The position numbers and the translations under genes are program-made. The notes beneath the pieces were generated by a model, which did not search any database, had not been told where the DNA came from, and was given only the letters and a program-made list of their open reading frames with translations. A stretch of 26,129 bases of DNA from a virus. Numbering within the stretch: the stretch's first letter is position 1; each line of letters starts with the position of its first letter. This document shows positions 1 through 25,406 of this stretch, piece after piece. Where the stretch lies: the IMG/VR virus record IMGVR_UViG_3300008108_000460, positions 1 to 26,129 of that record. One strand, 5' to 3'.

Positions 1-444
1 TAATTCAATTTCTATTTCAGTATCAGGATGAAGACATCCTGTTGGAGATAAGGCAATGTATCTCTTAGAAGTTATTCCTTTACGGATAGCTTCTATCTGA
101 TAATCTCTTGGTTCAATTGTTTCCGACCCAGAGTACCATTTAATTGAAGAAAGAAATTTATCCACTTCTGCCGAATCATATGCTATGTTACTGAAATTCT
201 TTAAGAAAGAGTAACCATTTTCTTCGGCATATGATTCAATATAATGAGTCAATCCCTTATGGATTATATTCTTTCTCTTATCAAATAGATGTATCTTACC
301 GTCCCAGGCTCTTCTCTTAAATGCTGGCATGAATTTAGCACCAGGAACGTCAAAAGATAAACGATCATATAACTCTTGTGCTATTCCTGGTTCAGTTTCT
401 ACATGTACCCAAGTTTCATTTAATGATGTAAGTGTAATTTTCAT
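1..444 (-). CDS. uvsW: UvsW-like DNA helicase, N-terminal part, interrupted by an intein
   Basis: Reading down from the ATG at 444, 148 codons are visible before the window ends. UvsW is the T4 superfamily 2 helicase that drives fork regression, branch migration and the switch to recombination-dependent replication. The N-terminal domain (residues about 20-60, including a PAFKRRAWDGKIHLFD stretch) matches the T4 UvsW N-terminal DNA-binding domain. The helicase Q-motif is RDYQIEAI near residue 115. The Walker A loop starts as SPTG (residues 133-136) but continues with Cys137 and CLHPDTEIEIEL instead of SGKS. That is the pattern of an intein N-terminal splice block (Cys, hydrophobic residue, then Asp-Thr). 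The rest of intein and helicase lies outside the window. A TATAAATA late promoter sits just upstream, which fits T4, where uvsW is a late gene. The helicase call is strong; the intein call rests on 12 residues. Confidence 0.88.
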   Translation of the reverse strand, partial: MKITLTSLNETWVHVETEPGIAQELYDRLSFDVPGAKFMPAFKRRAWDGKIHLFDKRKNIIHKGLTHYIESYAEENGYSFLKNFSNIAYDSAEVDKFLSSIKWYSGSETIEPRDYQIEAIRKGITSKRYIALSPTGCLHPDTEIEIEL

Positions 445-470: not shown

Positions 471-713
471 CTACTTTTTGTATCCAGAAGAATCGCCAAA
501 AACTCTTACATACAAATAGACAAGCTTCTTGACAAGATATGATACACCTAGCACACCCATTGCTTCGTAAAAGATAGCATCGACTTCTCTCTTAGAGAAT
601 ACAGTATCTTTTCCAGAAACCTTCAAACCAAGTTTCTGTGCTCGTCTTAGTTCGTTTTTAGTTTTCTGCTTGTTGATTGAATTTCTGTTTGAATTTTTCG
701 TATTCTTTGGCAT
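471..713 (-). CDS. Small unknown protein sharing a motif with its upstream neighbour
   Basis: An 80-residue basic protein of unknown function. The first ~20 residues are Asn/Lys-rich and low complexity. They are followed by NELRRAQKLGL, nearly identical to NELRRAQKVGL at the N-terminus of the 402-residue protein encoded just upstream. The coding DNA for this motif is a perfect 20-bp repeat. The start at 713 overlaps the 3' end of the upstream gene by about 56 bp in another frame. Only a weak purine stretch precedes it, so the true start may differ. The C-terminal half (VLGVSYLVKKLVYLYVRVFG) is hydrophobic and could touch a membrane. The gene looks like a short paralogous remnant whose original N-terminus was replaced by recombination. 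Confidence 0.55.
   Translation of the reverse strand: MPKNTKNSNRNSINKQKTKNELRRAQKLGLKVSGKDTVFSKREVDAIFYEAMGVLGVSYLVKKLVYLYVRVFGDSSGYKK
637..656. repeat. 20-bp direct repeat, copy 1
   Basis: TGTGCTCGTCTTAGTTCGTT occurs here and again, identically, at 1820-1839. On the minus strand it encodes NELRRAQ in two neighbouring genes. It is either a trace of duplication or a homology that drives local recombination. Confidence 0.9.
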
Positions 714-1866
714 AATACAAGCTTTTCTTGATTACATTTTCTGCCTCAGGCCAAGGTCTTTTTAATACGTCAAACGCATACATAGCAGCATAATCTGCTT
801 TTTGTAATATATATTTTTCTGCCTGTTCAAATCTACCTTTCAATATTTCTGTGGCATAATCATACGCCAATTCAGGATCTTGTGCAATTGCGTCTTCTCC
901 TTTCGGAAAACGACCTTTTAATACATATCTTGAATATCTATATGCAAGTAGAGAATCTTTTGCGATTCCATCTTCACCTTTTGGAAATGGACCATTCAAT
1001 GTATATCTTGCATAATTGTAAGACATTTCAGGATCTTTTGCAATAGACTCTTCGCCTTTTGGAAACGGTCCGTTCAAGATGTATTTTGAATACTTGTACG
1101 CTATTACTGGATCTTTTGCTAATATGTCTTCTCCAAATTTCGGTACTTTTCTTGTTTGTTTGTATTTGTTTACAACAAACTGCCACACAGAATCTATATT
1201 ATTTTTATCGACATCTATATATTGTTTGTTTTCAAATCGTCTCACAACTTTTGCTACAGTTGAATCAAGTATAACACCTTGTGTTGGTTCGTTGTCGTGA
1301 ATGATACCGTCGCCTGCATTATCAATAACAACTTTCACACCCAAAGTGTTTCTCAATACACTTGTCCATCTTCTTGGATTATCGTCTGCTGCAAAAAATG
1401 ATAGAAACCACCATATACCGCCGGATGTCTGAACTCTTGCATCGTCTTTTGCGTCTCTCAAAATACTTTTGTAATTGTCTTTAAACAGAATCTTTGCGTC
1501 GGCTTCTACGACATCATTTGTAACATTATCCAAAAATACAATATGTTCTTCTTTAGTATCTATTCTTATGATGTTGATAAATGGAGCTTCGTGTTGAAAA
1601 GGAAGTGTTACAGTATTCAAGTAATACTTTGCCGGATAAAAATACACACCAATTGGTGTGTAGTATTCAGATCTTGGATTGATTCCAACCTTAGGGATCT
1701 TGGTCATTGTTACACCATAAAGATCAAGATTTACTCCTTGATCTTCTAAGTTGTGTAAATAAGTTCTGGCTGCAGAATGTCCAAACTCTGCAGCCTTATT
1801 TACAGCCAGTCCAACTTTTTGTGCTCGTCTTAGTTCGTTGATGAAAGATTTGAAGTGTTTTTGCAT
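658..1866 (-). CDS. Unknown 402-residue phage protein with tandem YA..LKGRFPKGE repeats
   Basis: Function unknown. The first residues (MQKHFKSFINE) resemble the leader of T4 capsid-targeted proteins, which end in I-x-E, so packaging into the head is possible. A middle region (about residues 50-215) carries motifs such as VGINPRSEYYTP near the start and GDGIIHDNEPTQ near the end. I have an impression of having seen these in other phage proteins but cannot name the family. The C-terminal half (about 245-395) has five or six tandem repeats of about 25 residues with core LxGxFPKGExxIAKDPxxxYxYA. The last two units have decayed (FEQAE, WPEAE). The repeats look helical, TPR- or Sel1-like, but I do not assign them to either. 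The start at 1866 lies 18 bp beyond the uvsY stop. Confidence 0.75.
   Translation of the reverse strand: MQKHFKSFINELRRAQKVGLAVNKAAEFGHSAARTYLHNLEDQGVNLDLYGVTMTKIPKVGINPRSEYYTPIGVYFYPAKYYLNTVTLPFQHEAPFINIIRIDTKEEHIVFLDNVTNDVVEADAKILFKDNYKSILRDAKDDARVQTSGGIWWFLSFFAADDNPRRWTSVLRNTLGVKVVIDNAGDGIIHDNEPTQGVILDSTVAKVVRRFENKQYIDVDKNNIDSVWQFVVNKYKQTRKVPKFGEDILAKDPVIAYKYSKYILNGPFPKGEESIAKDPEMSYNYARYTLNGPFPKGEDGIAKDSLLAYRYSRYVLKGRFPKGEDAIAQDPELAYDYATEILKGRFEQAEKYILQKADYAAMYAFDVLKRPWPEAENVIKKSLYYAKEYEKFKQKFNQQAEN
1820..1839. repeat. 20-bp direct repeat, copy 2
   Basis: Identical to 637-656. It encodes the N-terminal NELRRAQ of the 402-residue protein on the minus strand. Confidence 0.9.
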
Positions 1867-2994: not shown

Positions 2995-3732
2995 TTATTC
3001 AGATAACAACTCATCCTCAACCTGAGATTTTGCGATGATAAATGATTTAACTATTCCTGAACGAACGATATCTTCTATACCAAATTCAATGATATCAAAT
3101 TCAGGCATCTTTTCAATAATCTTCATGAAATGCGGTAGACCTGAAATATCCCACTTAGATTTAATAAGATCGTTTTGTAACCAATCTCCACAAAAGAAAA
3201 TCTTAGTGTTCTTACCAACACGTGTTATAACTGTTTCTAATTCCTGTGCCGAACAATTTTGGAACTCATCTAGAATAATGAACGTATCATTAATTGTTGT
3301 TCCACGTAAGAAAGAAGTAGAACAAAATTCAACAATTCCTTTTGTTTTTAAGATTTCAAATGCATCTCCTCTACCAAATAATTCTGCGAAGATACCACGA
3401 TAAGGATCTTCATATACAGCCATCTTTTCTTTCAGAGTTCCTGGCAAAAATCCAACGTCTCTTGATGAAACAGTTGATCGAATAATCATTATTTTTGTTG
3501 GATGGTCGTTAGCAGTTCTATCTCTCTTTATTAATTCTGAGAGAGCCAAATACAATGATATATAAGTTTTACCAGTTCCCGCCGAACCACAAAGAACAAG
3601 ATTATAACCTTCTCCAAAAGCATCAAAGACATCTTGCTGAGCTTCTGTAATAGGTTGTATCTTTTTCAAAGAAAATGAATTATCTATTGTTGGTTCCAAA
3701 TTATTTTTGGAGTTTCTTGGTTTTCTTGACAT
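2995..3732 (-). CDS. phoH: PhoH-like ATPase
   Basis: 245 residues. Walker A is GSAGTGKT (residues 49-56). Walker B is IILDEFQN (about 152-159), the PhoH form of the motif (usually DEAQN). PITEAQQDVFDAF before Walker A matches the PhoH N-terminal Q-like motif, and RSTVSSRDVGFLPG is the family signature between the Walker motifs. PhoH proteins are ATPases/helicase-like enzymes of RNA or phosphate-stress biology, and their role in phages is unsettled. AAAGGA lies at good spacing before the ATG. The first 25 residues are a basic extension. Confidence 0.87.
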   Translation of the reverse strand: MSRKPRNSKNNLEPTIDNSFSLKKIQPITEAQQDVFDAFGEGYNLVLCGSAGTGKTYISLYLALSELIKRDRTANDHPTKIMIIRSTVSSRDVGFLPGTLKEKMAVYEDPYRGIFAELFGRGDAFEILKTKGIVEFCSTSFLRGTTINDTFIILDEFQNCSAQELETVITRVGKNTKIFFCGDWLQNDLIKSKWDISGLPHFMKIIEKMPEFDIIEFGIEDIVRSGIVKSFIIAKSQVEDELLSE

Positions 3733-3775
3733 TTGTATCCTTTCATCATAACCAAGATATCACAAGTTAAACAAG

Positions 3776-4051
3776 TTAAACTTCTCGTACAATTGATCTG
3801 GATCTCTCTACATTGCCTCTTGGGTGTGCTTCTTTAATTCTACCCAATACATATTTCTGAAAATCTGCAGGTGCTTTTGTGACTCCTAATCTTACAGGAT
3901 CACCTATACCTGGAGCCGTAACAGATTTCTTAACAGATAAGGATAGACATGAAGGACATGGTTGAGTTGTTGGTAGATCACAGTCATCCATTTTAACATT
4001 CTTCTCGAAAGAGTATTTACACTCATCACAATGATAATCATACATTGGCAT
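3776..4051 (-). CDS. FmdB-like zinc-ribbon protein
   Basis: 91 residues. It starts MPMYDYHCDECKYSFE and has a second knuckle CPSC near residue 33, so a C-x2-C...C-x2-C zinc ribbon fills the N-terminal half. This is the FmdB/CxxC-type putative regulatory protein family. The C-terminal half (APGIGDPVRLGVTKAPADFQ) is not zinc binding and looks extended. The start is supported by GAGG upstream and a perfect TATAAATA late promoter at 4072-4079. DNA or RNA binding is likely but not shown. Confidence 0.75.
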   Translation of the reverse strand: MPMYDYHCDECKYSFEKNVKMDDCDLPTTQPCPSCLSLSVKKSVTAPGIGDPVRLGVTKAPADFQKYVLGRIKEAHPRGNVERSRSIVREV

Positions 4052-4071
4052 ATAATCAATAACCTCATGTG

Positions 4072-4079
4072 TATTTATA
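4072..4079 (-). promoter_or_regulatory. T4-type late promoter
   Basis: TATAAATA on the minus strand, 20 bp before the FmdB-like ATG. It overlaps the T-tract of the terminator that closes the upstream gene, so transcription stop and late restart are packed into about 40 bp. Confidence 0.65.
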
Positions 4080-4080
4080 A

Positions 4081-4106
4081 AAATTGGAGGTCCTACTAGG
4101 ACCTCT
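4081..4106 (-). terminator. Rho-independent terminator after the CobS-like gene
   Basis: On the minus strand a GAGGTCC stem (4100-4106 with 4088-4094, extendable by one A-T pair) closes a small loop and is followed by CAATTTTT. Confidence 0.8.
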
Positions 4107-4129
4107 TAATTGTTTAAGAATTTATATTT

Positions 4130-5302
4130 TTAAAATAGAATATCCTCATCATCGAAGTTTGATGCTTTATTTGAATTTTGTGTTTCAGCTTCGATAGTAA
4201 TAGATTCATCGATTTTTTGATATAATGAATAGAAAGATTTTTTAGTATCAGAATCAAATCTTGAAGTACAATACTTAATAGATTTCATTCTAGTTCCACC
4301 TACGATAGCAAAGAATCTGATAATATGAATCAATCTTCTAGTTGTAATAATATCATCAATTCCTCCGACATCAAATGTATCACGAATAGTTTTTGCCCAT
4401 TCAACCAATTTATTCGCAAACTCAACACTGTCATTCGTTTTACAATTCAACGAATCAAGAATATTAGTTAGAATCTTGATTTCGATTTCTTTTGATGGAT
4501 ATTCATGTTCTACGTTCATAGCAAATCTATCGAGCAGAGCTTCGTTCAAAGTATTTGATCCGATATAACGTCCATCATCAGATGCCTTTCCTTTTGTATT
4601 TGCTGTTGCAATAATATTGAAACCTTGAACTGGATGAATAATAGTATTGGTCTTCTTTATATAAATTGGATTACCTTCAAGAATAGGTTGAAGACACATA
4701 ATTTTATGCGTCCCCAAATTAATTTCATCTAATAAAAGAATAGCGCCATGATTCATTGCTTCTACAACAGGACCATCTTGCCACACAGTTTCTCCATTAA
4801 CTAGACGATAACCTCCAATCAGATCATCTTCATCAGTAGATTCTGTAATATTAACACGAAATAATGGTTTTTTAGTTTGAGCACAAACTTCATATACCAT
4901 CTTAGTCTTACCATTACCAGATTCTCCAGAAATATAAATTGGAAAGAATGCTTTAGAAGAAACAATTTTTTTAACTAGAGAAAAATCACCGAATGCTACG
5001 AACTCAGGATCTTTAATTGGAATTAAATTGATGTCATGGATGTGTTCTACCTTTTTTTCTGATACGAGTGGTTTCTGTTTATCAGGAGAAGGTGGTCTCT
5101 TTAATTCAATGACACCAGAAGAATCGGATTGTACATTCGAATCAATTTTATATACTCCTCGCCTAATCTTATTAGAATCGGTAGTCATGAATTCTGTAAA
5201 TTGTTTTTTTAAAGAATACTTATCTGCTACGATAGTTAATTCCGGTCTAGTGAATGTAGTTTGTCCTGGATACTCATTTCTAATAGCTTCAATAAAGTTC
5301 AT
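4130..5302 (-). CDS. CobS/MoxR-like AAA+ ATPase
   Basis: 390 residues. A CobS-type N-terminal region (YPGQTTFTRPELTIVADKY) precedes a Pro/Lys-rich linker (65-90) and a AAA+ domain. Walker A is GESGNGKT (126-133) and Walker B is ILLLDEINLG (about 188-197). Between them is DEDDLIGGYRL, the MoxR/CobS-type segment, and after them a sensor-1 IIATANTKG. Phage proteins of this type are often labelled CobS, but no CobN-like chelatase subunit is present, so cobalamin synthesis is unlikely. It is divergently transcribed from a VWA/metallopeptidase-like gene. MoxR-type ATPases typically pair with VWA proteins as remodelling chaperones, so the two probably act together. AAGGAG and a sigma70-type promoter precede the ATG. 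Confidence 0.85.
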   Translation of the reverse strand: MNFIEAIRNEYPGQTTFTRPELTIVADKYSLKKQFTEFMTTDSNKIRRGVYKIDSNVQSDSSGVIELKRPPSPDKQKPLVSEKKVEHIHDINLIPIKDPEFVAFGDFSLVKKIVSSKAFFPIYISGESGNGKTKMVYEVCAQTKKPLFRVNITESTDEDDLIGGYRLVNGETVWQDGPVVEAMNHGAILLLDEINLGTHKIMCLQPILEGNPIYIKKTNTIIHPVQGFNIIATANTKGKASDDGRYIGSNTLNEALLDRFAMNVEHEYPSKEIEIKILTNILDSLNCKTNDSVEFANKLVEWAKTIRDTFDVGGIDDIITTRRLIHIIRFFAIVGGTRMKSIKYCTSRFDSDTKKSFYSLYQKIDESITIEAETQNSNKASNFDDEDILF

Positions 5303-5329
5303 ATATCTCCTTAAAATCCGTACATACTC

Positions 5330-5358
5330 ATTATAGCGTTTCCATTCAAATAAAGCAA
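5330..5358 (-). promoter_or_regulatory. Sigma70-type early promoter for the CobS-like gene
   Basis: On the minus strand, TTGCTT (5353-5358), a 17-bp spacer and TATAAT (5330-5335). The -10 ends 27 bp before the ATG, leaving room for AAGGAG. Confidence 0.75.
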
Positions 5359-5394
5359 CTCTACAAAATTAAAATATTTTAATTTTTGATGAGC

Positions 5395-5423
5395 TTGACT
5401 TTACCCGTCGGATACGGTATACT
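5395..5423 (+). promoter_or_regulatory. Sigma70-type early promoter P1
   Basis: TTGACT (5395-5400), a 17-bp spacer and TATACT (5418-5423). The predicted start site is about 5430, exactly on an ATG. Confidence 0.78.
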
Positions 5424-5429
5424 TAATGT

Positions 5430-5489
5430 ATGGAATCTGAGCTGAAGATCTCAAATTTATATTTCCTATTTGACATTCATCATGAATAA
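5430..5489 (+). CDS. Possible leaderless 19-residue peptide
   Basis: The ATG lies six bases after the -10 of promoter P1, so the transcript would begin at or next to the start codon. The frame gives MESELKISNLYFLFDIHHE and then TAA. It spans the -35 of the second promoter. It may be a true leader peptide for the VWA gene or a chance ORF. The argument for it is that other genes here have the same -10-to-ATG spacing. Confidence 0.3.
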   Translation: MESELKISNLYFLFDIHHE

Positions 5490-5497
5490 GGTATAAT
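5470..5497 (+). promoter_or_regulatory. Sigma70-type early promoter P2
   Basis: TTGACA (5470-5475), a 16-bp spacer and TATAAT (5492-5497). The VWA gene ATG is seven bases further on, so a transcript from P2 would be leaderless. Confidence 0.75.
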
Positions 5498-5504
5498 ATT
5501 AAAT

Positions 5505-7784
5505 ATGATTACAACTGTACAAGACAATGTAGCAAAATTAATGTCTATGGAAGATATAACAGTTATCCAGAAATCTGTGTCTACTGCATACTTCGATACT
5601 AAAAATAGAATATTGGTTATTCCAACATGGAACAATCTAACAGATATTGTTATAGAATCTCTTATTGGACATGAGATTGGTCATGCTCTATACACCGATT
5701 CAGATGCATATGTTAATGCTTGTAAACTTCGAGAACCTAATGAAGTGTTTCGTGATTATCTCAATATTATTGAAGATGCAAGAATTGAATCATTAGTTAA
5801 ACAAAAATATCCTGGTATGAAAAAGATCTTCTATTATGGATATAAACATATTATCGACAATAAGATTATTGAGATCGACGATGTAGAGGATCTTCCGATC
5901 ATCGATCGATTGAATGTGTATTTTAAATTTAATGGAATTATCCCATTAACGCTGTCAAAACGAGAAAATCTTTTCATTGAAAAGATTCAAGCAATTGATA
6001 ACTTTAAACAAGTTATAGATATTGCAATTGAATTATTTGATTCGGAAAAACATGAATCATTTGATGAACAACCATCTACTCGTCAGATCTTCTTCGAAAA
6101 CGAATCAGATACAAACGATACTAAGGAAAACCCAGAGAAGATTAACACAGAAACTGATTTCGATGGAATTCATAATAACTCAGAAAAACCAGAAAAACCT
6201 GATAACGGTGATTCCGGAAATAATGAAGAACAAGAATCAGTAAAAAAAGAGGAATCAGAATCCGATTCCAAAACGAAAAAAGAAACTAGTAATAAAATTG
6301 GTGGTTCGACTGGTTCTAAATCACAAGACGATAATGAACCGTCTAGATCTAAGACAAATAGAGATTTGGCTGAATCACTATCAAAATTAGTTGATACCAG
6401 TTCAATGTTACAGTATGTTGACATACCATCTCCAAATTTAAATAATATCATTTATCCATTTGAATCAATTAAAGTGGATTTTGAAAAATTTAATTTGCCG
6501 GATCTTTCAGCGGAAGATGATGATTTTGATTTAGATCGAAATAATCCGATCAAGAATTTTAATAAGAATCATAAAGCAAATATCTCATTACATAAACAAT
6601 TATTTGAAATGAGAAAAAAAGCTTTTCAATACAATAAGACTTTAACATTTAAGACTGGAAAATTAGATACAAACAAATTATATTCATACAAATATAATAA
6701 TGAGATTTTTAAGACTTCAGAAATCATTCCAAATGGAAAGAATAATGGATTAATTTTTATTATGGATCTATCTGGTTCTATGTATTCATATCTTTCAGGA
6801 GCTAAAGAAAAGGCTTTTGAATTGATATTATTCTGTAAACAATCAAATATTCCATTTGTTTTATATGGGTTTGTTGATACATTCAGAAATTCCGAAAATC
6901 CTATATATGGACGTAATAAACCCGCTCTTTTCGATCATTATGTTGGAAAAAATGAACATAGTTTAGGAATACATCCTAATTTTAAGTTGTATGAATTGTT
7001 AAGTTCTAGAATGAATTCATCAGATTTTAAAAAGATGTCTTCAATCTTTCTTAATTATATAGGGAAGTTGTCTGGACAACTTTCAATTGATCCAGCATCA
7101 ATTTCTGGTAAAACAATCACAAATATTGGAAATTATTCTTTAGGAGGAACACCATTAACAGAAACCCATTTATGTTTAGATTCACTGGTAAATAAATTTA
7201 GGAATGACACTCGCACACAAATTGTAAATGTGGTATATTTTACGGATGGCCAAGGAACAGAAACAAACTACATTAACAAAAATGGATCTTATAATAGGTT
7301 CAATTACTACAGTAGACCGAAAATCGTAATCCATGATCCAAAGACGAAGAAGAATTATGATTCTTCTCAAGAATCGATTCGCAATAGTCCATCTACTATT
7401 CTTAAGATAATTAAGCAGAGGATGACTGATGTTAATGTCATTAACTTTTTGATAACGAGTGATATTCTATGTGGTGTTTCAGCTGATTATTTTGATAAAT
7501 TAATGACAGATAATGGATATACTGAAAAATATATAAACATGACTTGGGAAAAGAAGCGGGAAGCGGAGATGGTTTTGAGATCTAAATATATTGTTATAGA
7601 AGATTCTAAAAGAGATTCATTTGATAATACATTCTTGTGTTCTGTTAATATGTTTAGAAAAAAGAAACAGCCTAAAATGGTAGATAAATCTATACAAGAA
7701 ACTATCGATACCTTCGTATTTTCTTCTAACTCTAAAAAGCAAATTAATACGATGATCTCAAAATTTATTGATTTGATTGTTTAA
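5505..7784 (+). CDS. VWA-domain protein with HExxH metallopeptidase-like N-terminus (CobT-like)
   Basis: 759 residues in three parts. Residues about 40-100 hold LIGHEIGHALYTD (HExxH, 56-60) and NIIEDARIE (Glu near 90), the zinc-site pattern of the CobT/VWA peptidase-like family. Residues about 185-300 are a charged, Ser/Glu/Lys-rich linker, probably disordered. The C-terminal half has a von Willebrand A domain: MIDAS DLSGS in FIMDLSGSM, a GGTPLTE threonine motif and a YFTDGQG aspartate. It is divergently paired with the CobS/MoxR-like ATPase, implying an ATPase plus VWA adaptor machine, as in other MoxR-VWA systems. The target is unknown. Two early promoters lie upstream, and only a distant AAGG could serve as ribosome-binding site. 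Confidence 0.83.
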   Translation: MITTVQDNVAKLMSMEDITVIQKSVSTAYFDTKNRILVIPTWNNLTDIVIESLIGHEIGHALYTDSDAYVNACKLREPNEVFRDYLNIIEDARIESLVKQKYPGMKKIFYYGYKHIIDNKIIEIDDVEDLPIIDRLNVYFKFNGIIPLTLSKRENLFIEKIQAIDNFKQVIDIAIELFDSEKHESFDEQPSTRQIFFENESDTNDTKENPEKINTETDFDGIHNNSEKPEKPDNGDSGNNEEQESVKKEESESDSKTKKETSNKIGGSTGSKSQDDNEPSRSKTNRDLAESLSKLVDTSSMLQYVDIPSPNLNNIIYPFESIKVDFEKFNLPDLSAEDDDFDLDRNNPIKNFNKNHKANISLHKQLFEMRKKAFQYNKTLTFKTGKLDTNKLYSYKYNNEIFKTSEIIPNGKNNGLIFIMDLSGSMYSYLSGAKEKAFELILFCKQSNIPFVLYGFVDTFRNSENPIYGRNKPALFDHYVGKNEHSLGIHPNFKLYELLSSRMNSSDFKKMSSIFLNYIGKLSGQLSIDPASISGKTITNIGNYSLGGTPLTETHLCLDSLVNKFRNDTRTQIVNVVYFTDGQGTETNYINKNGSYNRFNYYSRPKIVIHDPKTKKNYDSSQESIRNSPSTILKIIKQRMTDVNVINFLITSDILCGVSADYFDKLMTDNGYTEKYINMTWEKKREAEMVLRSKYIVIEDSKRDSFDNTFLCSVNMFRKKKQPKMVDKSIQETIDTFVFSSNSKKQINTMISKFIDLIV

Positions 7785-9247: not shown

Positions 9248-9293
9248 TATTGATTTAGAAATGATGGAATCCTTTAAGAAAGGAGAAGGTCCA

Positions 9294-9434
9294 ATGATAT
9301 GGATCACACATGAAGGAAGAACCTATTTCAATATTAATAAATTCATGAAATCTGAAAAAGGAAAACAAGTTATCTACGATCTTAAACTCTTTTCAGAAAG
9401 ACATAATTTGAGACCTTGGAGCGGAATATATTAG
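9294..9434 (+). CDS. Small unknown protein
   Basis: 46 residues from the ATG with a strong AGGAG eight bases upstream. The frame is open further up (ATGs at 9261 and 9216) but those lack a ribosome-binding site, and 9216 overlaps the phosphoesterase gene. The product (MIWITHEGRTYFNINKFMKS then a helical, basic end) is not recognised. Its stop codon touches the first base of the following tRNA. Confidence 0.5.
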   Translation: MIWITHEGRTYFNINKFMKSEKGKQVIYDLKLFSERHNLRPWSGIY

Positions 9435-9521
9435 GAGGATGCTGGGGTTGGCTCCCCACACAGTCTAGAAAACTGTAGTATCTCTAACTGGATAATAGTT
9501 CGATGCTATCATCCTCCTCCA
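9434..9521 (+). tRNA. tRNA-Ser(AGA), atypical D-arm
   Basis: The acceptor GGAGGAT pairs with ATCCTCC, followed by T and an encoded CCA. The anticodon arm is ACAGT-CTAGAAA-ACTGT, giving anticodon AGA. A long variable region of about 17 nt is typical of tRNA-Ser. The T-loop is TTCGATG with four of five stem pairs. The D-arm is unusual: a TGGGG/CCCCA stem with a six-base loop, no T at position 8 and no A at position 14. It may be functional, or a decayed or decoy tRNA. A34 in a serine tRNA is rare in bacteria. Confidence 0.65.
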
Positions 9522-9585
9522 CAAATAACCAGAAGGTGGGATTAATGGCGTCCATCCTTTAAAGAGTGAATCGAATCTTACTGGA

Positions 9586-11014: not shown

Positions 11015-11089
11015 GCTGCGATAGCTCAATGGTACAGCAGCAGTTTAGTAAACTGCAGATTGACGGTTCGATCCCGTCTCGCAGCTCCA
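11015..11089 (+). tRNA. tRNA-Thr(AGT)
   Basis: A perfect seven-bp acceptor GCTGCGA/TCGCAGC, then T and CCA. The anticodon arm GCAGT-TTAGTAA-ACTGC gives AGT. The T-arm is GACGG-TTCGATC-CCGTC. The D-arm has one mismatch. An A34 threonine tRNA is uncommon in bacteria. Confidence 0.85.
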
Positions 11090-11096
11090 ACTTTGA

Positions 11097-11170
11097 TGGG
11101 GTGTAGCTTAATGGTAAAGCATCCGACTTTGACTCGGAGTATGGGAGTTCGATTCTCTCCACCCTAACCA
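11097..11170 (+). tRNA. tRNA-Gln(TTG)
   Basis: Acceptor TGGGGTG/CACCCTA (one G-T pair), then A and CCA. It starts with T, as glutamine tRNAs often do. The anticodon arm TCCGA-CTTTGAC-TCGGA gives TTG. The T-loop is TTCGATT. Confidence 0.9.
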
Positions 11171-12116: not shown

Positions 12117-12620
12117 ATGACTGTTCTTGTTTTAAATTCACAATATTTGCCCATACAAACAACTTCGGTAAAGAAAGCTGTAAAATTGATTTATCGTGGT
12201 GTTGCTGTGGCAGAGAAGTACACAGAACAAGTATGGAAATCTATCTCTTCAGAAATGATTCTTCCGGCTGTTATTCGTCTAATCAATTTTCATAGATTAC
12301 CGAATAGATCTTATAAGTTATCTAAGAAGAATATTCTCATCAGAGATAGATATACTTGCCAATATTGTCAGGGAATCTTCTCTGAAAGAACTCTGACATT
12401 AGATCATGTTATTCCAAAATCAAAGGGTGGATCTTCTCGTTGGGAAAATTTAGTTGCCGCTTGTAGAAAGTGTAATTCTAAGAAAGCCGATAAGACACCC
12501 GAAGAAGCGTGCATGAGATTGTTGTCGAAACCAATGAAATTGACAGTCCACACTCACACAACAATATTGAGAAATAAAGGAGAATCAAGACCAGAGTGGT
12601 CTGAGTTCTTATTCAATTAA
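12117..12620 (+). CDS. HNH endonuclease
   Basis: 167 residues. The C-terminal half holds a complete McrA-like HNH: RDRYTCQYCQ (first zinc CxxC), LTLDHVIPKSKGG (catalytic DH), WENLVAACRKCNSKKAD (Asn plus second CxxC). The N-terminal half (VLNSQYLPIQTTSVKKAVKL) is the usual companion domain of this stand-alone family. Such genes may be homing-type mobile nucleases or nicking enzymes used in packaging or exclusion. The position in a tRNA-rich accessory region favours a mobile element. GGAGAG precedes the ATG. Confidence 0.88.
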   Translation: MTVLVLNSQYLPIQTTSVKKAVKLIYRGVAVAEKYTEQVWKSISSEMILPAVIRLINFHRLPNRSYKLSKKNILIRDRYTCQYCQGIFSERTLTLDHVIPKSKGGSSRWENLVAACRKCNSKKADKTPEEACMRLLSKPMKLTVHTHTTILRNKGESRPEWSEFLFN

Positions 12621-12929: not shown

Positions 12930-13005
12930 AGTTCCATAACTCAATGGTTAGAGTGCTTACCTTATAAGCAAGTGGTTCTCGGTTCGAATCCGAGTGTGAC
13001 TACCA
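12930..13005 (+). tRNA. tRNA-Ile(TAT)
   Basis: Acceptor AGTTCCA/TGTGACT (one mismatch, one G-T), then A and CCA. The D-stem ACTC/GAGT is perfect. The anticodon loop CTTATAA gives TAT, with one mismatch in its stem. The T-arm is CTCGG-TTCGAAT-CCGAG. It would read ATA, a codon used in this AT-rich genome but rare in many hosts. Confidence 0.85.
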
Positions 13006-13008
13006 AAT

Positions 13009-13083
13009 GCCCCTATAGTTCAACGGAAAGAACACTAGTCTACGAAACTAAAGATCCAAGTTCAAGTCTTGGTAGGGGTTCCA
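13009..13083 (+). tRNA. tRNA-Arg(ACG)
   Basis: Acceptor GCCCCTA/TAGGGGT (first pair G-T), then T and CCA. The anticodon loop CTACGAA gives ACG. The T-arm is CCAAG-TTCAAGT-CTTGG. It starts four bases after the tRNA-Ile, so the two are co-transcribed. Confidence 0.87.
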
Positions 13084-21301: not shown

Positions 21302-21721
21302 ATGACACATTGGTTATATGAGAATAAAGGAATAGAAGATATTCCTGAAGGATATTTTGGATTTGTATATTTGATTACAAATACAAAAACAGGAAGAATG
21401 TATATTGGTAAGAAACAATTTAATTCTTACCGTTCAAAGAAAATAAAAGGCAAAACAAGAAAGAAAAGATTCGTTCTTGAATCTGATTGGAAAGATTATT
21501 GGGGATCTTGTGAAGAATTGAAAGAAGATATTAAGATTTTAGGAGAAGATTCTTTCAAGAGAGAGATTCTTAAATTATGCAAAACACGTGGTGACTTAAC
21601 TTATTCAGAAGTAGAATTTCAAATAAAAAAAGACGTCCTAACAGCTTTAGATTCTGAAGGACGTCGTTTATATTATAATTCAAATATAATGAGTAGATGG
21701 TTTTCTAAGTCAAAATCGTAA
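21302..21721 (+). CDS. GIY-YIG-type nuclease-like protein
   Basis: 139 residues. The N-terminal half starts GFVYLITNTKTGRMYIGKKQ, a GIY-YIG core (VYL...YIGK), with basic helix positions RSKKIKGKTRKK. A conserved-looking SDWKDYWGSCEELKEDI and a LTYSEVEFQ helix (with Glu) follow. This form of stand-alone GIY-YIG protein is common in T4-like phages and is often called a homing endonuclease, though some family members may be structural or repair enzymes. It lies on plus, alone among minus-strand late genes, ending with a 17-bp overlap to the radical SAM gene on the other strand. Confidence 0.75.
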   Translation: MTHWLYENKGIEDIPEGYFGFVYLITNTKTGRMYIGKKQFNSYRSKKIKGKTRKKRFVLESDWKDYWGSCEELKEDIKILGEDSFKREILKLCKTRGDLTYSEVEFQIKKDVLTALDSEGRRLYYNSNIMSRWFSKSKS

Positions 21722-22856
21722 ATTCATTTGAAATATATGCTTGTTTACCTTGTATCCATGTTGAAATCATAGCATGTTCGAGAAGTGTTAAACCAGGAAA
21801 CTTACTTAAAGGTAGAACCCCAGACTTAATATATTCTTGTTCGAAGAATTCAAACAATTTAAAATACATCTCACATAATTCAGTTTTATTTCTCCAATCA
21901 TATTTAATTCCAGTTCCAGGACATTGCCCTTTACACATAACAAAAAATCTACATCCTTTACAACCACCATATTCTTGTGGTGTATGATATAATGCGACTT
22001 GTCTTTCATATCCATATGTATTTGACTTGAAGAAATTTATTCCTTCTTTATTAGTTCTTCCGCAATTATGTCGATTTCCTTGACCATCTACAGCTCTTAC
22101 TGCTTGTGTTGTGTGTGGATCGCAAGCTTGGAATGTGCATGTTGCTTGTTGATCGTCGCCCAATAACATTCTCTTTATGTCATTAAACATATCAAATTTC
22201 ATATTCTTAAGAGTTGTTTCAAATTTAGCCATATCTAACATAATCTGTACATTCTCTTCTGACGTTAAACCAAACTGTTCTGTGATAGAATCATATTCAA
22301 CTTCAAGTACATGAAGTCTAACACTCATAATACCTTTTTCGTCAAGTTCTTTCAACCAGATTTTCAATTTATCTAGATTAGACGTATTGTATTTTGTTAA
22401 TGTTACAATTAACGAAGGAATAACACCACTATCTAACATCTTATCAATAGCATCTAGAGTCAATTTAGATTTTCTTCTTGTTTCTTCCAAAGAACCTGAC
22501 CACCTAGAATCATTCAATTCATCGGGACCATCTAATGATACACCAACCGAAACATTGTATTTCTTGAATAATTCAATATGTTCGTCTGTTATTAGAGTAC
22601 CATTAGTTTGAATACCATTTCTTCCATATTTTTGAAAACCAAATTTCCATAATTCTTCAATGGTTTTTATATCAGTAAGAAGTGGTTCTCCACCAAATAG
22701 AGCAAAATAATCTCCTTCTTTTTCGAGAGCCGAAATCATCTTATCTAAATCATATTCCTTATCTGGATAATTGCCAGCTTCTCTCATTGGATGCTCATAA
22801 CAATACGGACAACTTAGATTACATGTTATACCAACTGGACTAACTTCGATACTCAT
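21705..22856 (-). CDS. Radical SAM/SPASM enzyme
   Basis: 383 residues. C-x3-C-x2-C at 12-19 (TCNLSCPYCYE) binds the [4Fe-4S] cluster that cleaves SAM. FGGEPLL (about 53-59) is the SAM-binding GGEP motif, and VGVSLDGPDELND the typical strand-5 motif. The C-terminal 150 residues hold a SPASM-like cysteine set: RHNCGR, GGCKGCRFFVMC, KGQCPG and ELCEMYF, enough for one or two more clusters. SPASM enzymes mostly modify ribosomally made peptides or proteins (anSME, PqqE, RiPP maturases). It is the last gene of an operon with a DUF483/methyltransferase protein and a His-x-Asp repeat protein, so one of those, most likely the latter, may be its substrate. Confidence 0.88.
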   Translation of the reverse strand: MSIEVSPVGITCNLSCPYCYEHPMREAGNYPDKEYDLDKMISALEKEGDYFALFGGEPLLTDIKTIEELWKFGFQKYGRNGIQTNGTLITDEHIELFKKYNVSVGVSLDGPDELNDSRWSGSLEETRRKSKLTLDAIDKMLDSGVIPSLIVTLTKYNTSNLDKLKIWLKELDEKGIMSVRLHVLEVEYDSITEQFGLTSEENVQIMLDMAKFETTLKNMKFDMFNDIKRMLLGDDQQATCTFQACDPHTTQAVRAVDGQGNRHNCGRTNKEGINFFKSNTYGYERQVALYHTPQEYGGCKGCRFFVMCKGQCPGTGIKYDWRNKTELCEMYFKLFEFFEQEYIKSGVLPLSKFPGLTLLEHAMISTWIQGKQAYISNEFTILT

Positions 22857-23379
22857 GATACATTTCTTCTCCTGTCAAAAATTTATTTCTTATTTCATTG
22901 AACCACATAGTATAGTAATTTGAAACCGTATCTCTGAATATCCAAATTTTTGGTAACATATTCTTAACAGATTCCAAATCAGTCGAATTAGTTACTAAAC
23001 CATATAGATTGGAATTAAAGATATTGCACTTCAAATCGTTCGATATTATTTGGATATCTTCATCACTTAATCTTTGATTAGTGAAGAATATATCATTATT
23101 CAATAACATTGTTGGTAGAGAAGAATCAAATTTTTCTGACAAATATTTCTCAACAGTATCATATTGAATTGTCATGATAATCTTCAGATTAATTTTATAT
23201 GATTGTTTATTAATCATCCAATCTATCTTATTGATTAATGATGTTAAGAAATATTGATTTGGATTTGTTTTAAAGAAAATAAGAAGATTTATTTCATTCT
23301 TCTTAAATTTAGATATGCATCTCCATATATGGATGATATCGTTATATTGTAGTGAGTTATATTCAAATATTAGATTCAT
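22840..23379 (-). CDS. Unknown protein of the radical SAM operon
   Basis: 179 residues, not recognised. It is a mixed alpha/beta protein that begins with strands (MNLIFEYNSL, then INLLIFFKTN and INLKIIMTIQ). It continues through ISNDLKCNIFNSNLYGLVTN and ends with an aromatic, acidic helix (YYTMWFNEIRNKF). Lack of cysteine clusters argues against a second radical SAM enzyme. Its ATG shares four bases with the stop of the methyltransferase gene, and its end overlaps the radical SAM start by 17 bp. It is therefore translated with both and may be a substrate-binding or scaffold partner. Confidence 0.65.
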   Translation of the reverse strand: MNLIFEYNSLQYNDIIHIWRCISKFKKNEINLLIFFKTNPNQYFLTSLINKIDWMINKQSYKINLKIIMTIQYDTVEKYLSEKFDSSLPTMLLNNDIFFTNQRLSDEDIQIISNDLKCNIFNSNLYGLVTNSTDLESVKNMLPKIWIFRDTVSNYYTMWFNEIRNKFLTGEEMYHEYRS

Positions 23380-24806
23380 ATTATATTAAAAGATTTCTGT
23401 TTCTGTTTCATTACAAATTTACCAACATAAGCACAACAATTAATACCTTCTATTTTTGTTGTGTTTGAAAATTCAACATCAATACTGTTGAGATATTCAA
23501 CAAATCTACTCGATTCTGATTGCCAATCAGAATAATTATACAACAAAACAGTTGATTCGTTTTGAATTAACCAATCAATAAGGTGTCTTGAAGATTCTTC
23601 TAAAAATCTACCATACATTATTATTGATAGGTCTATGTTTTTTTGTAACCAATCTGCAGATTTATTGAAAATATTTTGATTATAAAATTCACCAAAAGAA
23701 ATATTTAAACCTATTCGATCAAATCTTTCTTTATCTAATTCAACACCATATATATCTTTAATATCAAATTGTTTAGATATTTTCTTCAGTAATTCCGCAT
23801 TACCGCAACCAAAATCTATAACATTCTTGAAAGATATTTGTGATTGTGTTAGTGCTTCAATAAGAATATTGTGACTATATTCCATAGATTCCAAAGAATA
23901 AAAACCATTATCTTTCCATAAATTATTTATGTTCAACGATCTCTTAAAGGATTTAGATTGCGTTATCTTTATTTTCGATTTATTAATATAAGGAAATGAA
24001 GTACCAGATGCTCCAAGTTCTGGGTATGAGAAACCTTCTCTTTTGACTTCATATAATTCAGCTGTTGCATCTGTTCTTGAGGATATCTTTAATATCGGCG
24101 ATTTTATTTCCGCAATTCCATGTAATGCAGACCAACTTACAGGCCAATCTAACATTTCTTCAATTACATCGATATCTTCATCATATCCTAAAGAACGACC
24201 AAATTCTAAATATTTTCTTCCCAATTCATATGTATGTTGACAATTAAAAGAACATGGAAGATGACTAACAGCTCTAATACCAATCCATCTTAGAAGAATA
24301 TTACATTCCTTTGGTCCAACAGTACCTGCTAAACTCATTGGATAAGTGGTATCTACGAATTGCTCATCTACCCAATATTTCTTGAAGAAATCCGTACAAC
24401 ATTTCGGATAACCTAATAATCTACCAATTTCTTCATCATTATTAGTATTCCAAGCAGATAACCAAGAATCAACATAATCCTTATGTAAGAGGACGCATCG
24501 AACTGTGTAATTATACTTATCCGTTGTAATCTGTGATGTATTACTATATTGATCGGTTGCTTTTGTTTTGATTAGAGGTATTAATCTAAATTCTGAAGAA
24601 GAAAGAGATATTTGTTTGTCTATGAAGTCAGAATGAGACATAGAAGTCAAATTGGCAGGTTTAATACCTACCAATACTAATTCTTGTTCTATGTTTTGGA
24701 ATGCTTGCGAAGCTTTCTGTATTTTGGGTTCCCAGAAACTTTTTGCTGGTTCACTAACCCAAATAATGCGTGTCCAATCGTGCAATAAAAAATTCAATCT
24801 ATTCAT
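23376..24806 (-). CDS. DUF483-like domain fused to a SAM methyltransferase
   Basis: 476 residues. The N-terminal ~250 contain LLGYPKCCTDFFKKYW (about 130-145), the LGYPxCC mark of DUF483-type proteins, then HLPCSFNCQHTYELGRKYLE with three more Cys/His positions. A metal or Fe-S site is likely. Residues about 330-470 are a Rossmann methyltransferase: motif I VIDFGCGNAELL, an acidic YGVELDKERF, and later LSIIMYGRFLEES. The fusion places a possible metal-binding substrate domain and a methyltransferase in one chain. Its ATG follows the stop of the His-x-Asp repeat gene by 12 bp. Together with the radical SAM gene it suggests peptide or protein modification. The substrate is not known. Confidence 0.78.
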   Translation of the reverse strand: MNRLNFLLHDWTRIIWVSEPAKSFWEPKIQKASQAFQNIEQELVLVGIKPANLTSMSHSDFIDKQISLSSSEFRLIPLIKTKATDQYSNTSQITTDKYNYTVRCVLLHKDYVDSWLSAWNTNNDEEIGRLLGYPKCCTDFFKKYWVDEQFVDTTYPMSLAGTVGPKECNILLRWIGIRAVSHLPCSFNCQHTYELGRKYLEFGRSLGYDEDIDVIEEMLDWPVSWSALHGIAEIKSPILKISSRTDATAELYEVKREGFSYPELGASGTSFPYINKSKIKITQSKSFKRSLNINNLWKDNGFYSLESMEYSHNILIEALTQSQISFKNVIDFGCGNAELLKKISKQFDIKDIYGVELDKERFDRIGLNISFGEFYNQNIFNKSADWLQKNIDLSIIMYGRFLEESSRHLIDWLIQNESTVLLYNYSDWQSESSRFVEYLNSIDVEFSNTTKIEGINCCAYVGKFVMKQKQKSFNII

Positions 24807-24818
24807 ATAGATTACTTA

Positions 24819-25406
24819 TTAAGCAGTAAAATCTCCATGTACAAATTGTGGATAATCTATATGTGTATCATAAAATGGAATCTCAATATCTGCATGTGTT
24901 GTTGATATATCAGAAAAATCTTGGTGAGATCCATTATTCAAATAAGAATCAACGTGAAATCCTGGAACAGTAGAGAAGTCATTATGATTTGTATATGAGT
25001 CCCCATGTGCCCCACTATCTGAATGTGATGAAGACAGATCTTCATGATCAGAATGACTACCATTATCGGTGTGCCCCTCATCTTGATGATAAGACACTTT
25101 ATATTTCTGCGATCCCGTCGAATATGTTGATGATATGCAAAGTTTAGAAGATTCTATCCAAATAGATCCATTGATAGAAGAATCGATTCCTGTTGGAGTT
25201 GATAAAGAATAATAATTTAATCTTCTTTCATAGTTAGAAGAATCGATATATCTTATGACTAAATCCGAATCCGTCCAAATTGAACCCGGAATCGCACCAC
25301 TTCTATAATCTCCGACTATACCAAGATATCTATATGTTTGAGCTGTAGCTGGGCTAAAATATAAATAATCTCCTTCAACCCATAACGATCCTGTTGTGAT
25401 TGCCAT
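24819..25406 (-). CDS. Fibre-like protein with 12 His-x-Asp motifs
   Basis: 195 residues. The N-terminal ~100 have three beta repeats beginning GS-[LI]-W-[VTI]-[ED]: GSLWVEGDYLYF, GSIWTDSDLVIRY and GSIWIESSKLCIS, as in adhesin or tail-fibre shafts. The C-terminal ~90 residues hold twelve H-x-D motifs (HQD, HTD, HSD, HED, HSD, HGD, HND, HVD, HQD, HAD, HID, HGD). They are 3-7 residues apart at first and 8-11 apart later, separated by small polar or aromatic residues. T4 fibre tips use H-x-H ladders to bind iron; H-x-D could do the same with other metals. As first gene of the operon with the modifying enzymes, it is the natural candidate substrate. Confidence 0.75.
   Translation of the reverse strand: MAITTGSLWVEGDYLYFSPATAQTYRYLGIVGDYRSGAIPGSIWTDSDLVIRYIDSSNYERRLNYYSLSTPTGIDSSINGSIWIESSKLCISSTYSTGSQKYKVSYHQDEGHTDNGSHSDHEDLSSSHSDSGAHGDSYTNHNDFSTVPGFHVDSYLNNGSHQDFSDISTTHADIEIPFYDTHIDYPQFVHGDFTA

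What the first reader, a model, noticed from the sequence alone, without database searches (positions are those of the whole stretch)
1..60. Intein inserted in the Walker A loop of UvsW
The helicase reads ...IALSPTG and then CLHPDTEIEIEL where SGKS(T) is expected. Cys directly after the Gly, followed by D-T and alternating hydrophobics, is the standard N-terminal splice block. Inteins favour P-loops, so this would disrupt ATP binding until splicing and could make UvsW activity depend on splicing. I do not know of a reported intein in a UvsW gene.
Basis: partly seen in the sequence, partly recalled or inferred. Interest (0 to 1): 0.78.

Follow-up and report, generated by a model that had tools for sequence, protein, structure and literature searches.

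The report
Intein inside phage UvsW's ATP-binding loop
A phage DNA-repair helicase gene carries, exactly in the loop that binds ATP, a small parasitic protein segment predicted to cut itself out after translation; near-identical phages lack it and a more distant relative carries the same segment broken in two around a DNA-cutting gene.

Summary
The window is a whole 26,129-base virus record that stops 36 bases into the insert. A second record, L002, is identical to the window's last 287 bases and continues. It gives a 139-aa mini-intein running from Cys1 to THHN, then SGKS and the rest of UvsW. L001 has a 98%-identical uvsW without the insert, so the empty site is known to the codon. AlphaFold with a 19-row alignment gives a Hint fold (pLDDT 92.7). 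Its best PDB match is the VidaL intein (TM 0.83). All class-1 residues are present, and no endonuclease is inside. L081 has the homologous intein at the same site, but fractured: a 32-aa N-intein ORF, a reverse-strand Vsr-like endonuclease gene, and a C-intein/UvsW ORF. L157 carries a second UvsW intein of this fractured type at the neighbouring GK^T site. The UvsW intein is homologous to Walker A inteins of phage UvsX. I found no published UvsW intein in the library held, though key papers are not in it. This is a new host gene for a known kind of element. Caveats: splicing is predicted, not shown, and L002 carries a 5-bp frameshift at the DExH box. A regulatory role is untested.

The parts
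37..444 (-). uvsW 5' part: N-extein, 136 aa, ending ...ALSPTG (first half of Walker A / motif I)
   Evidence: 98% identical to the uninterrupted UvsW of L001
1..36 (-). first 12 codons of the intein (block A, CLHPDTEIEIEL); the record ends inside it. The remainder (codons 13-139) is known only from L002:288-668
   Evidence: (287 identical bases with L002)
37..48 (-). codons S-P-T-G; the intein lies between this Gly and Ser+1 of S-G-K-S
   Evidence: alignment with L001 and about 110 UvsW loci

Best explanation
The window ends inside a class-1 mini-intein (139 aa) inserted between Gly and Ser of the P-loop (SPTG^SGKS) of a T4-type UvsW helicase in an uncultured phage. The precursor cannot form a Walker A loop, because 139 residues separate G from SGK. 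The Hint domain is expected to activate Cys1 (N-S shift, helped by block-B His81), pass the acyl group to Ser+1 (the first Ser of SGKS), cyclise Asn139 with help from His138, and so restore an uninterrupted SPTGSGKS and active helicase. Steps shown: the insertion, its precise empty site, the complete catalytic residue set, the predicted Hint fold, and purifying selection. Steps inferred: that it splices, that splicing is spontaneous in cis, and that it spread by homing. The intein is homologous to the P-loop inteins of phage UvsX (VidaL type). At the same uvsW site in a related phage it exists as an atypical split intein interrupted by a Vsr-type homing-endonuclease gene. So this is a mobile-element insertion whose fractured form would need trans-splicing. 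It most likely persists because only precise loss restores the gene. A regulatory role is possible but unsupported.
For: L002 overlaps the window by 287 identical bases and gives the full insert followed by SGKS. L001 is the precise empty site at 98% identity. Cys1, the block B SxxH His81, block F Asp120, His138, Asn139 and Ser+1 are all present; H81, D120, H138 and N139 are invariant across 19 relatives. AlphaFold pLDDT is 92.7, pTM 0.84. Foldseek's top matches are inteins: VidaL 6vgv TM 0.83, then NpuDnaB, NpuDnaE and gp41-1. The profile of the intein and its phage relatives hits VidaL at 2.3e-46 and gp41-1 at 4.9e-15. L002 alone hits the atypical split intein CatC at 3.7e-4. L081 has the homologous split intein at the same site, 68% identical, dN/dS about 0.08 with dS saturated. 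The Vsr-like endonuclease in L081 scores TIGR00632 4.5e-4. The local uvsW allele swap (67-83% identity, inside flanks that are 98-100% identical) has the insertion site within it.
Against: The intein beyond residue 12 is not in the window itself. L002 carries a 5-bp deletion in the DExH box that would truncate UvsW; it may be an assembly error or a recent loss. Curated intein HMMs are not reached by this sequence alone: TIGR01445 scores 14.8 bits against a cut-off of 24.5, and Pfam gives no hit. The structure model used an alignment rich in UvsX inteins. No splicing experiment exists.
Confidence: 0.95

Rival explanations
1. A dead intein or dying gene: the insert no longer splices, or UvsW has been lost in this lineage, so the gene is on its way out.
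For: L002 has a 5-bp deletion (L001 positions 271-275 after the insertion, GACGA in GACGAGACTCAC) that shifts the frame at the DExH box. Some phages tolerate the loss of repair helicases (general knowledge).
Against: The intein keeps all catalytic residues and shows low dN/dS against L081 (0.225 over about 3.0, dS saturated). The rest of uvsW in L002 is 96-100% identical to the intact L001 gene with no other lesion. The deletion lies between two GAC copies in a short 4.7-kb contig, so an assembly slip is plausible.
Confidence: 0.12
2. The window strain's own copy is the split (fractured) form, with an endonuclease gene following just after the window edge, and only the L002 strain is contiguous.
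For: The related phage L081 is split at the same site after 32 N-intein residues. The window ends before the split position.
Against: The window's 36 intein bases and the next 251 bases are identical to L002, which is contiguous, while L001 differs at 11 sites over the same flank. L081 is only 54% identical in the N-extein.
Confidence: 0.06
3. Assembly chimera: an unrelated intein-bearing sequence joined onto uvsW.
For: Both records are metagenomic assemblies, and the window breaks at the insert.
Against: The two records overlap by 287 bases, an odd length for contigs of one assembly, so they are probably separate assemblies. The insert is in frame, is flanked on both sides by the same uvsW gene, and ends exactly where the empty site begins. 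An independent relative has the homologous insert at the same codon.
Confidence: 0.02

Closest known systems
VidaL intein (PDB 6vgv) and the phage UvsX/RecA Walker A inteins (L083 Salicola phage SCTP-2 gene 204; L086, L090, L091, L151-L155, L160, L163, L166, L167)
   Same: Insertion between G and SGKS of a P-loop, Cys1 ... HN^Ser+1, mini-intein of about 135-148 aa. Both contiguous and short-N split forms occur, the split lying after beta-2. Best fold match, TM 0.83.
   Different: Host protein is UvsW (SF2 helicase), not UvsX (RecA fold). Sequence identity is only 23-30%. The UvsW pair forms its own clade, and its placement relative to the UvsX inteins is unresolved.
Fractured genes with split inteins and Vsr-type homing endonucleases (Dassa et al. 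2009, known to me and cited in PMC11766414 and PMC7090010; the paper itself is not held)
   Same: L081 and L157 uvsW: N-intein ORF, endonuclease gene, C-intein/extein ORF. Endonucleases belong to one family (phrog_22677, 4e-13 to 8e-16; TIGR00632 vsr 4.5e-4 for L081). The same layout is seen here in UvsX (L153), gp41 (L093) and TerL (L096, L103).
   Different: The window/L002 copy is contiguous and has no endonuclease. In L081 the endonuclease runs on the opposite strand. I know of no earlier UvsW case.
AceL-TerL / GOS-TerL / Cat atypical split inteins (6dsl)
   Same: Short N-intein, Hint fold, phage host proteins, detectable sequence similarity (3.7e-4).
   Different: Those split after the first helix (S2 position, PMC13014065). 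L081 splits before it (VidaL-like S1), judging from the model's secondary structure.
P-loop inteins of terminase and other ATPases (for example mycobacteriophage TerL1-a, PMC5050341)
   Same: Insertion in Walker A of a DNA-handling ATPase. The classic site is K^T, which the second UvsW intein (L157) uses.
   Different: The window's intein is at G^SGKS, a few residues upstream in the loop.

Membership tests
Intein (class 1) | In-frame insertion in a conserved host protein with a precise empty site in relatives | tested here: met
   L002 against L001, codon-exact; about 110 uninterrupted UvsW loci
Intein (class 1) | N-terminal nucleophile, block B His, C-terminal His-Asn, +1 Cys/Ser/Thr | tested here: met
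   C1, H81 (SNNH), H138-N139, S+1
Intein (class 1) | Hint fold | tested here: met
   Predicted model pLDDT 92.7; Foldseek top hits are inteins
Intein (class 1) | Curated intein HMMs above cut-off | tested here: not met
   TIGR01445 14.8 bits (cut-off 24.5); no Pfam hit. Sensitivity limit: several clear phage homologues also miss these models. This is a detection threshold, not a defining property of inteins.
Intein (class 1) | Protein splicing activity | not testable with these tools
   Needs expression
Homing element (endonuclease-bearing intein) | Endonuclease in or beside the intein | tested here: not met
   The 139-aa L002 intein has none. The homologue L081 has a Vsr-like endonuclease between the halves.
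Split intein / fractured gene | Intein and host gene coded in two ORFs | tested here: not met
   L002 is contiguous. Met in L081 and L157. The window itself ends before the split point.
UvsW helicase (host protein) | UvsW_N domain and SF2 helicase domains in the gene without the insert | tested here: met
   UvsW_N, ResIII/DEAD and Helicase_C in the empty-site gene L001; L002 has a frameshift at motif II

The most novel reading that the evidence does not exclude
At one and the same uvsW codon, nature shows three states: empty (L001), contiguous mini-intein (window/L002) and the homologous intein fractured by a Vsr-type endonuclease gene (L081). The contiguous form carries a Met exactly where the fractured C-half starts. 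This would be a directly reconstructable case of a contiguous intein becoming an atypical split intein by endonuclease-gene insertion (or the reverse fusion), with uvsW alleles being swapped by homing among otherwise near-identical phages.
Probability: 0.55. Interest if true: 0.62.

Novelty: new member of a known kind. Interest (0 to 1): 0.5.

Why it matters
It adds UvsW, the phage helicase that dismantles R-loops and drives recombination-dependent replication, to the P-loop proteins colonised by inteins. It also shows two separate P-loop sites used in that one protein family. The same insertion exists empty, contiguous and split. That gives a natural series for testing how atypical split inteins (valued as protein-labelling tools) arise, and whether homing drives the local allele swap seen in uvsW. 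A contiguous 139-aa intein with a natural split sibling at 68% identity is also a practical starting pair for engineering.

Tried and rejected
A single-sequence AlphaFold model was useless (pLDDT 43.5) and was replaced by an alignment-based one. The pattern search of the window's own record only showed that the window is the whole record, so nothing lies beyond its edge. The scan of bacterial/archaeal genomes with the intein alignment found no relative. L082 is a spurious 20-residue hit. The tree of 27 phage inteins does not resolve whether the UvsW intein descends from UvsX inteins. PDB hits to beta-propeller designs ('Bagel') cover only about 40 residues, come from summed repeats, and were ignored. 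A group I intron as the cause of the split in L081 uvsW was rejected: Rfam finds an intron only in its gene 32. I considered the window's SegE-like GIY-YIG gene as a trans-acting homing enzyme for the endonuclease-less intein; there is no evidence, so it is kept as a lead only. The direction of change between L001 and the window could not be oriented with L170 as outgroup (5 sites with L001, 5 with the window, 4 with neither).

Full report
WHAT IS IN THE WINDOW. The record is complete at 26,129 bases, so nothing lies beyond its edge. On the minus strand, 444..1 encodes a protein that starts as T4-type UvsW (UvsW_N 1.1e-13; T4 UvsW 1rif/2oca) and reaches ALSPTG, the first half of motif I. It then reads CLHPDTEIEIEL and runs off the end. 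The 36 bases at 1-36 do not belong to UvsW. In about 110 other UvsW contigs the same position continues [A/G/S]SGKS, with two exceptions, L002 and L081. Sixty phage-database UvsW genes sampled evenly from 2,427 matches align in a single piece across the site.

THE CONTINUATION. L002 (IMG/VR 3300008110_005686) is identical to the window's last 287 bases, including the 36 insert bases. It gives a 139-residue insert, CLHPDTEIEIELTEEEFNFRNIKMKTTVTFEELYKLVKSG...DWIDFTVDAEHQSYILNGLTHHN, followed by SGKSLIIASLIRFYY.... L001 has a 98%-identical uvsW with SPTGSGKS uninterrupted, so the insertion is exact to the codon. An overlap of 287 bases is not what contigs of one assembly normally share, so I infer that the two records come from different assemblies.

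IT IS AN INTEIN. Cys1, His81 of an SxxH block B, Asp120 of block F, His138-Asn139 and Ser+1 are present, and His81, Asp120, His138 and Asn139 are invariant in 19 relatives. The alignment-based AlphaFold model has pLDDT 92.7 and pTM 0.84. Its best solved match is the VidaL intein (6vgv, TM 0.83, 2.0 A), followed by NpuDnaB, NpuDnaE, gp41-1, Mtu RecA and the Cat atypical intein. The profile hits VidaL at 2.3e-46 and gp41-1 at 4.9e-15; that profile is mostly UvsX inteins. The sequence alone is too divergent for the curated intein HMMs, which also miss several plain homologues. No endonuclease domain is present.

RELATIVES. L081 (61-kb contig) has the homologous intein at the same codon, but fractured. 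ORF 3336-3842 is UvsW-N plus a 32-aa N-intein (CLHPDTQIDVEL...PWDT). On the opposite strand, 3823-4884 encodes a Vsr-like endonuclease (TIGR00632, 4.5e-4; phrog_22677, 7.6e-16). ORF 4992-6410 (likely ATG at 5001) is the C-intein plus UvsW-C. Intein identity to L002 is 68% (116 aligned residues) and C-extein identity 69%; dN/dS is about 0.08 and 0.10, with dS saturated, so rough. The Met that starts the L081 C-half aligns with an internal Met (residue 24) of the contiguous intein. By the model's strands and helix, this split lies before the first helix, the S1 position of VidaL rather than the S2 position of AceL/GOS-TerL (PMC13014065). L157 (and its near-copy L159) is a different UvsW (UvsW_N 1.9e-4, phrog_16259 3.2e-15, phrog_16 3.8e-61) fractured in the same way at GAGK^T with a same-strand endonuclease. 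So the UvsW P-loop has two intein sites. The next relatives are UvsX Walker A inteins (GESG^C...HN^SGKS), both contiguous and split, including Salicola phage SCTP-2 gene 204. A tree keeps the UvsW pair together (99/95) but does not resolve its link to UvsX.

SIGNS OF MOBILITY. Window/L002 and L170 are mostly 98-100% identical for about 1.4-2 kb on either side. The uvsW gene itself, from about -450 to +900 around the insertion site, is only 67-83% identical. L170 has no intein. L001 shares the window's uvsW allele, lacks the intein, and differs from the window upstream only in a cluster at -142..-79 (11 changes in 64 nt; 0 of 100,000 random draws that tight) and, just downstream, at +9..+11. 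Local allele replacement with the insertion site inside the replaced tract is what homing with co-conversion predicts. Ordinary recombination can also make it, and the direction of gain or loss could not be settled.

HOW IT WORKS. Shown: position, exact empty site, catalytic residues, predicted fold, purifying selection. Inferred from the established class-1 mechanism: Cys1 thioester, transesterification to Ser+1, Asn139 cyclisation, and restoration of SPTGSGKS. Because 139 residues separate Gly from Ser-Gly-Lys, the precursor should not bind ATP, so UvsW activity waits for splicing. A regulatory use of that delay is not supported by anything here. The simpler reason for the site is that only a precise loss restores a critical loop, as argued for mobile elements in T4-type phages (PMC2988022).

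CAVEATS. The intein beyond codon 12 is read from L002. L002 carries a 5-bp deletion (GACGAGACTCAC to GACTCAC) in the DExH box, about 270 nt after the intein; the rest of the gene is clean, so an assembly slip or a very recent loss is likely. No UvsW intein turned up in the library searched, but that library lacks subscription papers and Dassa et al. 2009, so priority is not proven.

NOVELTY. New member of a known kind: a P-loop intein of the VidaL/UvsX type and, in L081 and L157, the known fractured-gene layout, in a host protein for which I found no earlier report. The empty, contiguous and fractured series at one codon is the most interesting part.

Noticed in passing
L157:1312-4272: A second UvsW-family helicase, fractured at GAGK^T by an atypical split intein with a same-strand Vsr-family endonuclease; a near-copy is L159.
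   Followed up: partly
L081:8028-10071: Gene 32 (ssDNA-binding protein) of the split-intein phage is interrupted by a group I intron (RF00028, 59.2 bits, 9254-9552) that also encodes a DUF7487 protein, a probable homing endonuclease.
   Followed up: partly
L170:1-8408 against window/L001/L002: uvsW alone is a divergent allele (67-83% identity) inside flanks that are 98-100% identical: a gene-sized allele swap among T4-like phages.
   Followed up: partly
L002:920-960: 5-bp deletion between two GAC copies in the DExH box of the intein-bearing uvsW; error or real loss not resolved.
   Followed up: partly
L001:1694-2329: A 211-aa gene (about 640 bp) downstream of uvsW is present in L001 and L170 and missing in L002; no convincing family found.
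   Followed up: no
window 21302-21721: SegE-family GIY-YIG endonuclease gene (PF19835, 1.1e-39). In T4 the free-standing SegE targets uvsW (PMC2988022), so it is a candidate, wholly untested, for mobilising uvsW alleles here.
   Followed up: no
window 12117-12620: HNH endonuclease gene (PF14279, 4.9e-18) near tRNA genes (11015-11167, 12930-13080).
   Followed up: no
window 21705-25406: Radical SAM protein with a Cys-rich C-terminus, a DUF483/methyltransferase protein, and a 195-aa protein with repeated H-x-D / H-S-D motifs lie together beside a tail-fibre-like gene; they could form a peptide- or fibre-modifying set.
   Followed up: no
window 658-1866: 402-aa protein with tandem repeats of about 26 residues (...AKDPE..Y.YA...L.G.FP.GED.I...); a similar repeat protein is at L081:1871-2887.
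   Followed up: no
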